Positions 50,616 through 55,440 of a DNA stretch of 64,000 nt are shown one piece after another. A program made the translations under genes and the position numbers. The notes beneath the pieces are model-generated. The model had not been told where the DNA came from. It saw nothing but the letters and a program-made list of their open reading frames with translations, and searched no databases. This DNA comes from Acidobacteriota bacterium. Lineage in GTDB: Bacteria; Acidobacteriota; Thermoanaerobaculia; Multivoradales; SZUA-115. The number at the start of each line of letters is the position of its first letter. Positions within the stretch are counted from its first letter, which is position 1. Where the stretch lies: the NCBI GenBank assembly GCA_024277255.1, contig JAJRVQ010000170.1, positions 1 to 64,000 on the forward strand, given 5' to 3'.

Positions 50616-51107
50616 TCGTCCTCTTCCGTTTCCCGTTCTCCGATCTGTCCGCGTCTAAGTTCCGCCCGGCAGTAGTTCTGGCTCATGCAGGCGGCCCGGA
50701 CTGGGTGCTGTGTCAGGTTACGAGTGTCCCGTCCGGTTGATTCGGTAGACACCGAGAGAGTCGAGGCGCCCGCTGGGCTTTGGCGTCGCGACGCAGTCAT
50801 AGCAGGGCTATGGCGAGGAGCGACAACGTCGCACAGCGGGATGCATCGGCTCTCGAATGGCAGCGAATTAACCGGACGGGACACCAACAATCCATACGGA
50901 GACCCGCGGGCGGTGCCGCTTCTGGATGCGGCCTTCGTATCCGGCGGGCTTCGCCGCGCCAGTTTCGCGCGGCCGGGCAAACTCTTCACCGCGAGCCGGT
51001 CGATTGTTGAAAGGACTGTGGGTAGGCTCACCTCCACTGCTCTGAGGAGCCTCGTCGAGGCGGTGGTGGGCGTTCTTCATGGCGGTGTCAGGGAAGAAGA
51101 TCGCTAG
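50591..51107 (+). pseudogene. MazF/PemK-like toxin split by a 161-bp inverted-repeat element
   Basis: N-part 50591..50740 VVTLESGVVVLFRFPFSDLSASKFRPAVVLAHAGGPDWVLCQVTS; C-part (to 51107) NNPYGDPRAVPLLDAAFVSGGLRRASFARPGKLFTASRSIVERTVGRL. Confidence 0.8.
50724..50884. mobile_element. MITE-like hairpin element, 161 bp with 21-bp terminal inverted repeats
   Basis: gtgtcccgtccggttgattcg ... cgaattaaccggacgggacac, 20/21 complementary; interrupts toxin gene. Confidence 0.78.
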
Positions 51108-51180
51108 CCCATTGGCACAGCGGGCTCGGGCCTTCGATGCCACCGAAATGCGAGCCGAGTCATACCGGTCCGCACCGTAC

Positions 51181-54100
51181 CTAGATTCCCCTAAGCTCAA
51201 CCCCCTTCTTACGATTCTCGGCTCTCTGAAGTTCCTGCCCGGCGATCTCCATCCCGTGGCGGGCAGTTTCGGCTAGCTCGTCAGCTTCTCGGGTGAAAGC
51301 GGCGAAGGCGTCGATCCACTCTTGCCAGTGTTGGGATCCGTAGCCAACGATGGAGTGGCCGTGTGTCCATATAGTGTGATCAGCGATCTCGCGCGGGGAG
51401 TATCCGTGTTCCAGTGCGAGGCGAGCCTTCTTTGCCCAAATCTCGTCCGGGATGCCACCCAGGCCGCGGAGGTGGTATTCGGCGAGATGATCCAGGGAGA
51501 GGAGATGGCGAAAGACCTCCAGATGATCGCCAACCACCAGCGGTACCAGAAAGTATGCTGCGCTGCCTGGCAACAGCCAGTCGAGCATGGAGATTCTCGC
51601 CGCTGGCTCCAGCGCTTTCACCGTGGCTCGGACGACCTCTCTGTGCGTATTCGACTCCAGGCTCTCATCGTTCCGTCGGCGCAATAACCAGTCATAGGAG
51701 AGAGCTGGATCGGCCGCTAGAATCTGGCGGAGCCAGTAGCCGGTACCACTGTCAGGTAGGTCGGCGGGGCTGCGGAGAATGGCCTCTCGCCAGGGGTCGG
51801 AGAGCTCCGGTCGGATGGTGCCCTGGGGGTTGGAGGCCCACTCGCCGACAGCCGCGTTGATGGCGATCTCGCGGCGGGGATGTTCGAGCAGACGAAGCAG
51901 AGTCGGAATCGGGACTTCGTTCCTGAGAACCAGCGTTTCGACGCTGTTCGGGTAGAGCTGAGGGTGTGACAGCGCGCGTTCTAGCAGCTGAGGTGGCGGA
52001 TGGGCCATGGTCAGGAGTAACGAAACCGCGTGCGAGGCGAGGTTATCCCGATCCAGCATGCCAGCAAGCTGCTCTTCCGCGGGCACCTCTTCGTCCCGGA
52101 GTCGCTCCGCGAAGGGGACAACCAGGTCACCGGCGAGGTCCGCGTTGGCGAAGTTCGCCAGCCATTCCTCTGGATTGGCCACGGTTGTGGCGAGTTGCTG
52201 GCACAGCAATGGGGTGAGACGAGGCCATTGCCGCTGTAGCCACCGAGCTTCCCACTCCAACTCGACGAGCCGAGCCGCCACCTCTACCGGTTGCCCGAGG
52301 CACCACTCCTTGGCGAGCGCCTCAACGGCGACGCCGCGTTCCTGCTGCCGTCGTTGCCAATTCTCCGGGTTGTCGTGGCTGTCGTCGGGGAAGAGGCGCT
52401 CAAAGTCTGGATCTTTGGGTAGATTGAGGGAGATGTCGAGTCTGCTCGCCAACCGTTGCAGGCGAGCGGCCATGCCGGTGGAGTTCTTCGCCTTGGGGGC
52501 TAGGTCGCGCAGAATCTCTCGCGCGAGATCGTCCATTGTCGCTTGGTCTTCCTCCGAGGGCAGAACCGCTGGCGTGAGTCGGTCCGGGATTCTCAGGGTC
52601 TCCACCGTCTCGCTTACTCTGCGAAGCAGATCTGGATCGAGCCGGTCGAGTAGCGAACGGTAACGGCGCCAAATCTCGCCCAGCTGGTGGAGGGCGGTAC
52701 CGGAAAGGAGGCCCCACTCCATGGTGACTCTACTGCCGTACCCGGGGTCACTCGTCATCACCTTGAGACTAGGTGAGAGCGTTGCCAGGAGTGCCCTAAC
52801 AGCGATGTCGTAGTCGCCTCCTCGTTGGTGATAATTCTCGGCCTCACGGGCTACAAGCTTCCTTCGGCGCAGGGGTTGCGAACCCTCCACCAGCCCGTCC
52901 TGCATCCAATCTTGAAGAATCCGCAGCGGATGGTGTGGTTGCGAGTGCAAGGGGCCCGATGCCTCTTCGGCGGCGGCCAGGAGGTAAGGGATGGCCACCT
53001 CCGGTGCCACCACGAGGGCTACCGGTGTGAGCTCCATGGGGCTCGGGGCGTTGTCCAGCACCCACTGCGTATCCTCGGGTCGGAACTGCATCCAGGCGAC
53101 CCAAACTCGGAGAGCGGAGGACTTTGCGACGCGCTCTCGAAGCTCGTCGGGAGGGTGGATTGGCGCCTCTTCGGTCCGGGCGCGAAGCGCGGCGAGAAGC
53201 AGCGCCTCGGTGGCGGAGTCTTCGCTCGTGGCCTGGGCGAGTAGGGGGCGCGGGTCAAGGACCGGGGGCTCGGTACGCAAGAAGTTGGCGGCGATGAGGG
53301 AAGAGCGCAGCGGTTCTGGATCCACCCGCAGACGTTGGTCATGAAGCTGGGTGAGGAGGCCGCCGTGGGCCATCGAGGCAGTCGCTGTCGCCACGGAGGC
53401 GTGGTCGAGACGTAGGAAAGCCGCCACCTCCTCGATGGCGAATCCCGCCGTGCCACCCACGGCGAAGCAGGCCAAAAGGATCTGGAAGTTCTCTCCCGCG
53501 ATGGGAGTGAATAGGCTGACCAAATGGCGTCGCAGCCGGCTGCCAGAGAGGATCTCATTCCATTCGTCCCGTTTGCTGACGAGAACCAAACTGGCCAGTG
53601 TTGCCGCGAGCCCCGGTTTGTTGGCCGCTTGGGTCACGAGGTCGCGCAGAATGGAGGAAGGATCTGAGAAGCCCTGCCGGCGCAACGCTTCTTCGTCGAT
53701 TCCAGCGAGGCTGTAGAGATTGACCAGGTGATCGCGGGTGAGCAGCTCCAACTTGCGGATCTGGGAGCTGGGCAGAGAACCGAGCCTCTCGGCGAGATCA
53801 TCGCAGGCACCCGGCCAGGTCACAGCAAGAATCGAAAAGTCACCGATTCCTTGTTGGCGAATCCGTTGCAGTGTCTCGATCCGTTCGAGCTTCACATGAG
53901 CGTCGTCGACGATGAGGATTTTGGGCTGTCGATCGCGGATCTCGCCGGCGATCTCTGCCGCGTCGTCCGATTCCACGAAGAGCGCTTCAGCGCAGGCTGC
54001 CCAGCGGTGGAGGAGGAAGGTCTTGCCGCTTCCCGGCTGGCCACTGACGAGACGATTGCCTTCGGTGGTGTTGAGCCATTTGAGGTCCGCTTCCCGGCCG

Positions 54101-54621
54101 ATCAGCTCAATCTCGAAGAAGGGACGGTGGTTCGTCGGTACCGCGGTGAGTGCCGGCGGTGGGCCTGAGATCCCGAGAAGCTCCCTGCACCAACGGCTGT
54201 CTCGATAGAGCAGCTCGGCGAGCCGCTCGCGGTCGAAGATCTGAACGAGGGTGAAACCACGCTCCCGTGCAGCCTCTTCCAGCCGAGTCCGAGCCCGGGG
54301 CGAAACCTCGCGCGAGGTCACCAGGATGACCTTGCGGCGCGGCAACCCATCCTTGAGGTAGGAATCGAGGCTCTCTCGGAGATTTCTGGCAAAGTCTTTG
54401 GCCGTCGTGCATACGACGGGGAAGACTTCGGCCTCGCCGTCGAAAACGGCGCCGTCTCGACCGCTGTCTTTGCCGCGCGGCGCGATGGGGACCAGACCGG
54501 GAATCTCTCGTGCCAGCAGGTGGCAAGCCGCCCGTTGAAAGATCTTCCAGTTCAGCGGGCCGTCGAGACCTTCCAGGATCTTGTGGAGGTAAGGATCTCT
54601 GATCGAGCAGTCCGAACTCAT
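51181..54621 (-). CDS. large NTPase with N-terminal restriction-endonuclease-like domain (STAND/Avs-like candidate)
   Basis: N-term FQRAACHLLAREIPGLVPIAPRGKDSGRDGAVFDGEAEVFPVVCTTAKD; Walker A VSGQPGSGKTFLLH; Walker B KILIVDDAH; long helical repeat C-terminus. Confidence 0.75.
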   Translation of the reverse strand: MSSDCSIRDPYLHKILEGLDGPLNWKIFQRAACHLLAREIPGLVPIAPRGKDSGRDGAVFDGEAEVFPVVCTTAKDFARNLRESLDSYLKDGLPRRKVILVTSREVSPRARTRLEEAARERGFTLVQIFDRERLAELLYRDSRWCRELLGISGPPPALTAVPTNHRPFFEIELIGREADLKWLNTTEGNRLVSGQPGSGKTFLLHRWAACAEALFVESDDAAEIAGEIRDRQPKILIVDDAHVKLERIETLQRIRQQGIGDFSILAVTWPGACDDLAERLGSLPSSQIRKLELLTRDHLVNLYSLAGIDEEALRRQGFSDPSSILRDLVTQAANKPGLAATLASLVLVSKRDEWNEILSGSRLRRHLVSLFTPIAGENFQILLACFAVGGTAGFAIEEVAAFLRLDHASVATATASMAHGGLLTQLHDQRLRVDPEPLRSSLIAANFLRTEPPVLDPRPLLAQATSEDSATEALLLAALRARTEEAPIHPPDELRERVAKSSALRVWVAWMQFRPEDTQWVLDNAPSPMELTPVALVVAPEVAIPYLLAAAEEASGPLHSQPHHPLRILQDWMQDGLVEGSQPLRRRKLVAREAENYHQRGGDYDIAVRALLATLSPSLKVMTSDPGYGSRVTMEWGLLSGTALHQLGEIWRRYRSLLDRLDPDLLRRVSETVETLRIPDRLTPAVLPSEEDQATMDDLAREILRDLAPKAKNSTGMAARLQRLASRLDISLNLPKDPDFERLFPDDSHDNPENWQRRQQERGVAVEALAKEWCLGQPVEVAARLVELEWEARWLQRQWPRLTPLLCQQLATTVANPEEWLANFANADLAGDLVVPFAERLRDEEVPAEEQLAGMLDRDNLASHAVSLLLTMAHPPPQLLERALSHPQLYPNSVETLVLRNEVPIPTLLRLLEHPRREIAINAAVGEWASNPQGTIRPELSDPWREAILRSPADLPDSGTGYWLRQILAADPALSYDWLLRRRNDESLESNTHREVVRATVKALEPAARISMLDWLLPGSAAYFLVPLVVGDHLEVFRHLLSLDHLAEYHLRGLGGIPDEIWAKKARLALEHGYSPREIADHTIWTHGHSIVGYGSQHWQEWIDAFAAFTREADELAETARHGMEIAGQELQRAENRKKGVELRGI

Positions 54622-54631
54622 GGCGGGTGAC

Positions 54632-55222
54632 TCAAGCTTTCAGCAGCCGGGCTAGCTCGACTTGGAGGTTCTTTTCTCCCGAGTACCCTCTGCGTTCAAT
54701 CAGATCGATGGCTTCCCTGGCGGTGGCGAGATCACTCTCGCTGGCATGCTGGAGGAGTTGGTAGGCGTCATCGTAGTCTCGCTTCCTCTTGGGACCGGCG
54801 GCGAGGAGCTTCATGGCGATGAGGTGACCGATCGAGGCCACGGGTGGTTGCAGGCCAGGCAGTATCTCTATGTGGGTTGCCGCGGCCACGATTTCAGGCT
54901 CAATCCCGGAGCTGGCGAGAAGCAGATCAACCATGACCTCCCGCGAAGCGGGCGGTGGTGGACGAAGGCGAAGAGTCGACAACCTGCCGGTGGATCGGTG
55001 TTCGAGGTGTTGAAAGGTCTGATAGCCGAGCTGAAGAAAGGAGGCTCCAATCTTCTCGGCTTCGGTGTCGTCGGCGACCGCGATTACCACATCGACGTCC
55101 TTTGTGGTCCGAGGAGCGGTGCGGAGGGAAACGGCGATTCCACCGACCAGTGCCCACTTCAACCGCAAACGTTGGATGTCACGTTCGGCGCGCCTGAGGG
55201 TCCCGACCAGGTTGCTGGGCAT
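54632..55222 (-). CDS. nucleotidyltransferase (AbiEii-like/MNT fold)
   Basis: WALVGGIAVSLRTAPRTTKDVDVVIAV; HLIAMKLLAAGPKRKRDYDD. Confidence 0.82.
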   Translation of the reverse strand: MPSNLVGTLRRAERDIQRLRLKWALVGGIAVSLRTAPRTTKDVDVVIAVADDTEAEKIGASFLQLGYQTFQHLEHRSTGRLSTLRLRPPPPASREVMVDLLLASSGIEPEIVAAATHIEILPGLQPPVASIGHLIAMKLLAAGPKRKRDYDDAYQLLQHASESDLATAREAIDLIERRGYSGEKNLQVELARLLKA

Positions 55223-55227
55223 GACCG

Positions 55228-55440
55228 CTAAGACCGAGAGTTCGAGGGCCGAATCACTTCGTGATCGGGAGGAATCTCGTTTTGAAGCCATTCCCGAAGC
55301 CGCGCAGCGATCTCCCTCTCGTCGGCCTGAGGATTTCGCCGCCGAAGGTTCTGACGCATGATGGCTTTTGCCGTCTCGAAGAGGTCGACAACGCCCTCCA
55401 TTCGGTCTTGGTACTTAGACTCTGCGATTGACTCCGTCAT
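55228..55440 (-). CDS. small protein paired with nucleotidyltransferase (putative antitoxin)
   Basis: 70 aa; 5 bp upstream of the NTase gene; KAIMRQNLRRRNPQADEREIAARLREWL. Confidence 0.6.
   Translation of the reverse strand: MTESIAESKYQDRMEGVVDLFETAKAIMRQNLRRRNPQADEREIAARLREWLQNEIPPDHEVIRPSNSRS

What the first reader, a model, noticed from the sequence alone, without database searches (positions are those of the whole stretch)
51181..54621. 1146-aa STAND-like NTPase with N-terminal nuclease-like domain: candidate anti-phage protein
The N-terminus resembles a restriction-endonuclease fold (GKDSGRDGAVF...FPVVCTTAKD), followed by Walker A GQPGSGKT, Walker B ILIVDDAH and a very long helical repeat C-terminus. 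This effector-NTPase-sensor layout is that of Avs/STAND defence proteins. The neighbours are TA-like or nucleotidyltransferase genes. I cannot assign it to a named family.
Basis: partly seen in the sequence, partly recalled or inferred. Interest (0 to 1): 0.7.

Follow-up and report, generated by a model that had tools for sequence, protein, structure and literature searches.

The report
Immune-sensor gene wired to tRNA toxin
This gene encodes a bacterial relative of animal and plant immune sensors (most like the phage-sensing protein Avs4), and it is the third gene of a conserved operon whose first two genes are an antitoxin and a tRNA-modifying toxin, which suggests, but does not prove, that the sensor controls that toxin.

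Summary
The 1146-aa ORF is real, at the stated coordinates, on the minus strand. It is a STAND-type ATPase: its full-length model matches phage-sensing Avs4 best in the PDB (E=1e-9), then AVAST5, Apaf-1 and plant NLRs. Its first 150 residues are modelled with a restriction-endonuclease fold, but across ten homologues the catalytic (E/Q)xK signature is missing: only the Asp pair is invariant, and the candidate Lys is present in 3 of 10. No PADLOC family covers it. The order MenA-MenT-STAND, gaps of at most 18 nt, recurs in six genera (one truncated); those STAND proteins form one clade (98/98). Relatives outside the clade lack the pair and sit beside Gabija, dCTP deaminase, Avs2, SIR2 or XhoI restriction genes. 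In a congener the STAND gene is deleted, leaving its first codons, and menT has a one-base frameshift. Best reading: an Avs-like sensor gating a MenT tRNA toxin. The anatomy is well supported; the wiring is inferred.

The parts
55228..55440 (-). MenA1-like antitoxin gene, 70 aa
   Evidence: Pfam PF18993 Rv0078B-related antitoxin E=8e-13; family profile finds MenA1 chain 8an5_C E=2.3e-12
54632..55291 (-). MenT1-like nucleotidyltransferase toxin gene (ORF 219 aa; the likely start is the ATG at 55222, giving 196 aa as in MenT1)
   Evidence: Pfam AbiEii E=1.6e-11; family profile finds MenT1 8an4 E=1.3e-64; catalytic positions T63, D65, K161, D175 invariant in five STAND-linked copies
51181..54621 (-). 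STAND (Avs4-like) protein, 1146 aa; starts 10 nt after menT
54172..54597 (-). N-terminal restriction-endonuclease-like domain (aa 9-150) with D52/D56 kept and no conserved (E/Q)xK
   Evidence: AlphaFold2 and Foldseek; alignment
53722..54096 (-). P-loop NTPase core (aa 176-300)
   Evidence: Pfam AAA/NACHT/nSTAND matches below cut-off, AAA_16 in 10 of 10 and nSTAND3 in 9 of 10 homologues
54019..54042 (-). Walker A GQPGSGKT (aa 194-201)
   Evidence: sequence; G194, P196, G197, G199, K200 invariant
53896..53919 (-). Walker B ILIVDDAH (aa 235-242)
   Evidence: sequence; D239, D240, H242 invariant
53272..53721 (-). Helical and winged-helix-like segment (aa 301-450), including the QAANKPGLA GxP-like motif near aa 331-339
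   Evidence: model secondary structure; weak ArsR winged-helix match, E=0.058, not significant alone; A332 and G337 invariant
51184..53271 (-). C-terminal all-helical repeat (aa 451-1146), putative sensor
   Evidence: model

Best explanation
The gene is the sensor of a three-gene immune or abortive-infection operon: menA1-like, menT1-like, STAND. In the resting cell the 70-aa MenA-like protein holds the MenT-like toxin inactive. The C-terminal helical repeat of the STAND protein binds a phage product, the ATPase switches and probably oligomerises, and this frees or activates MenT, which extends tRNA 3' ends and stops translation. The N-terminal restriction-endonuclease-like domain lacks the usual catalytic signature and more likely serves as a binding or coupling module than as a standard nuclease. 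Shown here by computation: the three genes, their homologies, the shared gene order and its single origin in the STAND tree, the invariant MenT catalytic positions, and the degenerate endonuclease motif. Inferred: phage sensing, oligomerisation, and control of MenT by the STAND protein.
For: MenA1 and MenT1 are the best PDB relatives of the two upstream genes; MenT1 is a tRNA nucleotidyltransferase blocked by MenA1 (PMC10435456). Same order with 1-18 nt gaps in G021, G015, G014, G008, and in G011 up to a contig edge. The six linked STAND proteins are one clade, 98/98. Catalytic positions of MenT are invariant. Avs4 is the top fold match. The endonuclease motif is degenerate. Four unlinked relatives lie among defence genes. 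In congener G001 the STAND gene is deleted and menT is frameshifted.
Against: No direct evidence that the STAND protein touches MenA or MenT. The MenAT pair is common without it, and four STAND relatives lack the pair, so each can work alone. The window copy keeps K75, so nuclease activity is not excluded. The G001 frameshift is one base in a draft genome and could be an assembly error. The linked loci are not themselves in obvious defence islands.
Confidence: 0.45

Rival explanations
1. A stand-alone Avs4-like nuclease defence protein: a phage protein binds the C-terminus, the ATPase oligomerises and the N-terminal domain cuts DNA. The MenAT pair is an independent neighbour that stabilises the locus.
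For: Fold match of the N-terminal domain to EcoT38I, MspJI and Avs4 and of the whole model to Avs4; D52 and D56 invariant and K75 present in the window copy; relatives without MenAT lie beside defence genes.
Against: The (E/Q)xK element is not conserved; position 75 is K in only 3 of 10. Strict operon order and spacing in one clade argue against an accidental neighbour.
Confidence: 0.33
2. The STAND protein is an additional antitoxin, chaperone or transcriptional regulator of the MenAT pair (tripartite toxin-antitoxin system) answering to stress in general rather than to phage.
For: Operon conservation; an Xre-type HTH is fused to two relatives; loss of the STAND gene goes with a broken menT in G001.
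Against: The linked proteins have no HTH in front; a 1146-aa STAND ATPase with a long repeat resembles phage sensors most; unlinked relatives keep company with defence genes.
Confidence: 0.15
3. Chance neighbourhood: the three genes are unrelated in function.
For: MenAT pairs without the STAND gene are common in the class.
Against: All six loci of the clade (one truncated at a contig edge) have the same order and spacing, from one origin in the STAND tree.
Confidence: 0.07

Closest known systems
Avs4 (AVAST type 4), PDB 8dgf
   Same: Top fold match of the full-length model (E=1.1e-9); its chain is also among the top matches of the N-terminal domain; effector-ATPase-helical repeat layout
   Different: About 10% identity in the structural alignment, low TM-scores, 1146 versus about 1540 aa; no PADLOC Avs model matches; endonuclease active site not conserved; joined to MenAT
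AVAST type 5 (PDB 9nc9), Apaf-1, plant NLR Roq1, NLRC4
   Same: STAND ATPase core matches
   Different: Other effector domains (Avs5 uses a Sir2 NADase, PMC12931631) and other sensors
MenAT1 (Rv0078B-Rv0078A) toxin-antitoxin pair
   Same: The two upstream genes are homologous and in the same order; toxin catalytic positions kept
   Different: Here followed by a STAND gene within 18 nt; the pair described in PMC10435456 is a two-gene system
AbiE (AbiEi/AbiEii) abortive infection system
   Same: The toxin matches Pfam AbiEii
   Different: The antitoxin is of the short MenA1 type, not the two-domain AbiEi type
NTP-dependent conflict systems of Kaur et al. 2020 (PMC7159879)
   Same: Large regulated NTPase systems with effector domains, some of restriction-endonuclease fold; several effector domains there are inactive enzymes
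   Different: Built on MoxR-vWA and other cores; the term AbiEii does not occur in that text

Membership tests
STAND NTPase | Walker A and Walker B of a P-loop NTPase | tested here: met
   GxPGxGK and hhhDDxH invariant in 10 homologues
STAND NTPase | Helical and winged-helix segment with a GxP-type motif after the NTPase core | tested here: inconclusive
   Conserved (N/G)(K/R)PG motif and modelled helices; winged-helix match weak; Pfam STAND models below cut-off
STAND NTPase | Fold similarity to known STAND proteins | tested here: met
   Avs4, AVAST5, Apaf-1, Roq1 among the best PDB matches, E from 1e-9 to 6e-4
Avs (Avs1-5) | Sequence match to a PADLOC Avs model | tested here: not met
   No Avs model at E up to 0.5 in 10 homologues, while the Avs2 neighbour in L027 scores 1485 bits
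Avs (Avs1-5) | N-terminal effector, STAND core, C-terminal repeat sensor in one chain | tested here: met
   effector role of the N-terminal domain not shown
Avs (Avs1-5) | Activation by phage terminase, portal or other phage protein | not testable with these tools
   Needs experiment
PD-(D/E)XK nuclease | Restriction-endonuclease fold | tested here: met
   Model pLDDT 80; EcoT38I, MspJI, Avs4 at probability 1.00, TM 0.45-0.48
PD-(D/E)XK nuclease | Conserved D ... (D/E/Q)xK catalytic set | tested here: not met
   D52 and D56 invariant; positions 73 and 75 vary, K75 in 3 of 10
MenAT1 toxin-antitoxin | Toxin homologous to MenT1 with its catalytic residues | tested here: met
   8an4 E=1.3e-64; counterparts of T39, D41, K137, D152 invariant
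MenAT1 toxin-antitoxin | Short Rv0078B-type antitoxin gene directly upstream | tested here: met
   PF18993 in all five full operons; 8an5_C E=2.3e-12
MenAT1 toxin-antitoxin | Toxin arrests growth by tRNA modification and antitoxin neutralises it | not testable with these tools
   Needs experiment

The most novel reading that the evidence does not exclude
A bacterial NLR-like sensor that delegates its effector step to a separate tRNA-nucleotidyltransferase toxin-antitoxin pair: menA-menT-STAND as a tripartite system in which detection of a phage product by the STAND protein releases MenT, while the STAND protein's own endonuclease-like domain has become a non-catalytic coupling module.
Probability: 0.4. 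Interest if true: 0.78.

Novelty: new variant of a known kind. Interest (0 to 1): 0.62.

Why it matters
Avs1-5 carry their effector within the same chain. What triggers MenT-type tRNA toxins is little known, and a phage-defence role has only been proposed (PMC10435456). An operon conserved by descent that joins an Avs-like sensor to MenAT1 offers a testable answer to both: a sensor that could switch MenT on during infection, and a STAND protein acting through a separate toxin. It also gives a clear case of a STAND protein whose endonuclease-like domain lacks its catalytic signature.

Tried and rejected
Chance ORF: rejected (homologues). Phage or plasmid gene: no relatives in viral contigs, plasmids or phages. 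Known PADLOC/NCBIfam family: none. Sequence-level PDB relatives of the STAND protein: none meaningful. Loss of the RPGAxxGD/WPR tail in STAND-linked MenA proteins looked like a signature, but many unlinked MenA proteins lack it too, and the tail is dispensable for MenA1 when overexpressed, so it was dropped. The NTase tree neither shows nor rejects a single linked clade (p-AU 0.19). Promoter scan gave nothing and terminator hits are near chance level. The G413 match covers only the C-terminal half of an open frame that starts at the contig edge, so domain swapping was not inferred. Laying out the whole genome, the one plasmid record tried and searching a phylum by name were not possible, so occurrence outside Acidobacteriota was sampled only by one strict pattern scan.

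Full report
Observation. The ORF 51181-54621 exists, on the minus strand, with 1146 codons and both Walker motifs as quoted. Homologues occur in 7 of 59 genomes of the order, 8 of 150 of the class and 11 of 396 of the phylum (own genome counted; the last figure includes fragments and two weak hits), so it is a real, patchily distributed family. Record titles place the relatives in Acidobacteriota, largely Thermoanaerobaculia. No relative was found in viral contigs, plasmids or phages.

Anatomy. AlphaFold2 on a six-row alignment gives an N-terminal alpha/beta domain, a P-loop ATPase, a helical and winged-helix-like segment and a long helical C-terminus (pLDDT 73.5, pTM 0.43). Foldseek puts Avs4 first (E=1.1e-9), then AVAST5, Apaf-1 and the plant NLR Roq1, with NRC3 and NLRC4 lower down. 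TM-scores are low and other helical-repeat proteins also appear, so this supports the class and layout rather than a detailed superposition. The N-terminal domain folded alone (pLDDT 80) matches EcoT38I, MspJI and Avs4 at probability 1.00, with TM 0.45-0.48 for the listed best chains. Pfam Mrr_cat matches the same stretch below its cut-off.

Catalytic residues. In ten homologues G50, D52, G54, D56, G57, T72, N80, L81 and L85 are invariant, but no (E/Q)xK follows the aspartates: position 73 is T, I or S, and position 75 is K,Q,E,Q,T,K,K,A,R,Q. The window copy has K75. By contrast, the Avs2 neighbour in L027 shows a normal QAK (sequence, identity as Avs2). The domain is therefore endonuclease-like in fold, but only doubtfully a canonical nuclease. 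Some active restriction enzymes lack the Lys (from general knowledge), so activity is not excluded.

The operon. Upstream and 10 nt away lies an AbiEii-family nucleotidyltransferase, preceded by a 70-aa protein of the Pfam family 'Rv0078B-related antitoxin'. Profiles of the two families find MenT1 (8an4, E=1.3e-64) and MenA1 (8an5 chain C, E=2.3e-12) in the PDB. MenT1 extends tRNA 3' ends and MenA1 blocks it; its catalytic residues T39, D41, K137 and D152 (PMC10435456) correspond to invariant T63, D65, K161 and D175 here (correspondence read by eye from the alignment). The same three genes in the same order, with 1-18 nt between menT and the STAND gene, occur in G021, G015, G014 and G008; in G011 the contig ends inside menT. 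The six linked STAND proteins are one side of a branch with 98/98 support against the four unlinked ones. The MenAT pair alone is common in the class (19 of 20 further NTase loci examined have the small gene upstream), so the pair looks like the older module to which the STAND gene was joined, probably once.

Relatives without the pair. L010 lies beside an integrase, a dCTP deaminase (E=5e-135) and Gabija GajA/GajB; L027 beside Avs2 (1485 bits); L029 beside a SIR2 protein (PDC-S65) and a large helicase; L028 beside a XhoI-type restriction-modification pair. This is guilt by association for defence. L027 and L029 carry an Xre-type HTH fused in front.

A natural deletion. In congener G001 the locus is collinear at about 87% identity, but window bases 50636-54592 are missing, with 33 unmatched bases at the joint. 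The first codons of the STAND gene remain, which points to loss in G001. In the same copy menT is interrupted by a one-base deletion, while menA and the first part of menT show dN/dS near 0.22-0.25. This is what one would expect if MenT is useless, or not tolerated, without the STAND protein; it is one case in a draft genome.

Judgement. That this is an Avs-like STAND protein in a conserved MenAT1 operon I hold at about 0.9. That the STAND protein gates MenT I hold at about 0.45; the nuclease-effector rival stands at about 0.33. Filing it as a named Avs type fails on sequence. 'Works like an Avs' stands on architecture and neighbourhood. Searches of the open paper library gave no title or abstract describing such an operon; subscription papers and preprints were not searchable, so absence from the literature is not proven.

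Noticed in passing
window:50724-50884: A 161-bp stretch bounded by 21-nt inverted repeats (95% complementary); parts of it recur at 88-90% identity in contigs C90 and C44 of the same genome, so it looks like a small mobile (MITE-like) repeat. It lies inside the segment missing from congener G001.
   Followed up: partly
window:45767-47115: A two-ORF transposase (a short helix-turn-helix ORF followed by an rve integrase-core ORF), IS3-like.
   Followed up: no
L027:7944-11540 and L029:7959-11735: Relatives of the STAND protein with an Xre-type HTH fused to the front, HTH_31 E=5e-10 and 1.6e-7: a variant that may regulate itself or bind DNA.
   Followed up: partly
L070:4035-6302: A second MenAT pair in G021 is followed, about 600 nt downstream on the same strand, by a KAP-family P-loop NTPase fused to an FGE-sulfatase domain; another possible NTPase-MenAT association.
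   Followed up: no
L065:5306-6250: In G007 a MenAT pair is followed after 8 nt by a 314-aa gene with no Pfam match.
   Followed up: no
L028:4798-8148: The G099 relative is broken into two open frames (917 and 181 aa), so it is probably a pseudogene or carries a sequencing error.
   Followed up: no
window:54632-55291 compared with L011:9349-9984 and L012:5244-5861: Three of the five STAND-linked MenT proteins have end branches of 1.3-1.6, about twice the median of 0.64, suggesting faster change after joining the STAND gene. Not tested formally.
   Followed up: no
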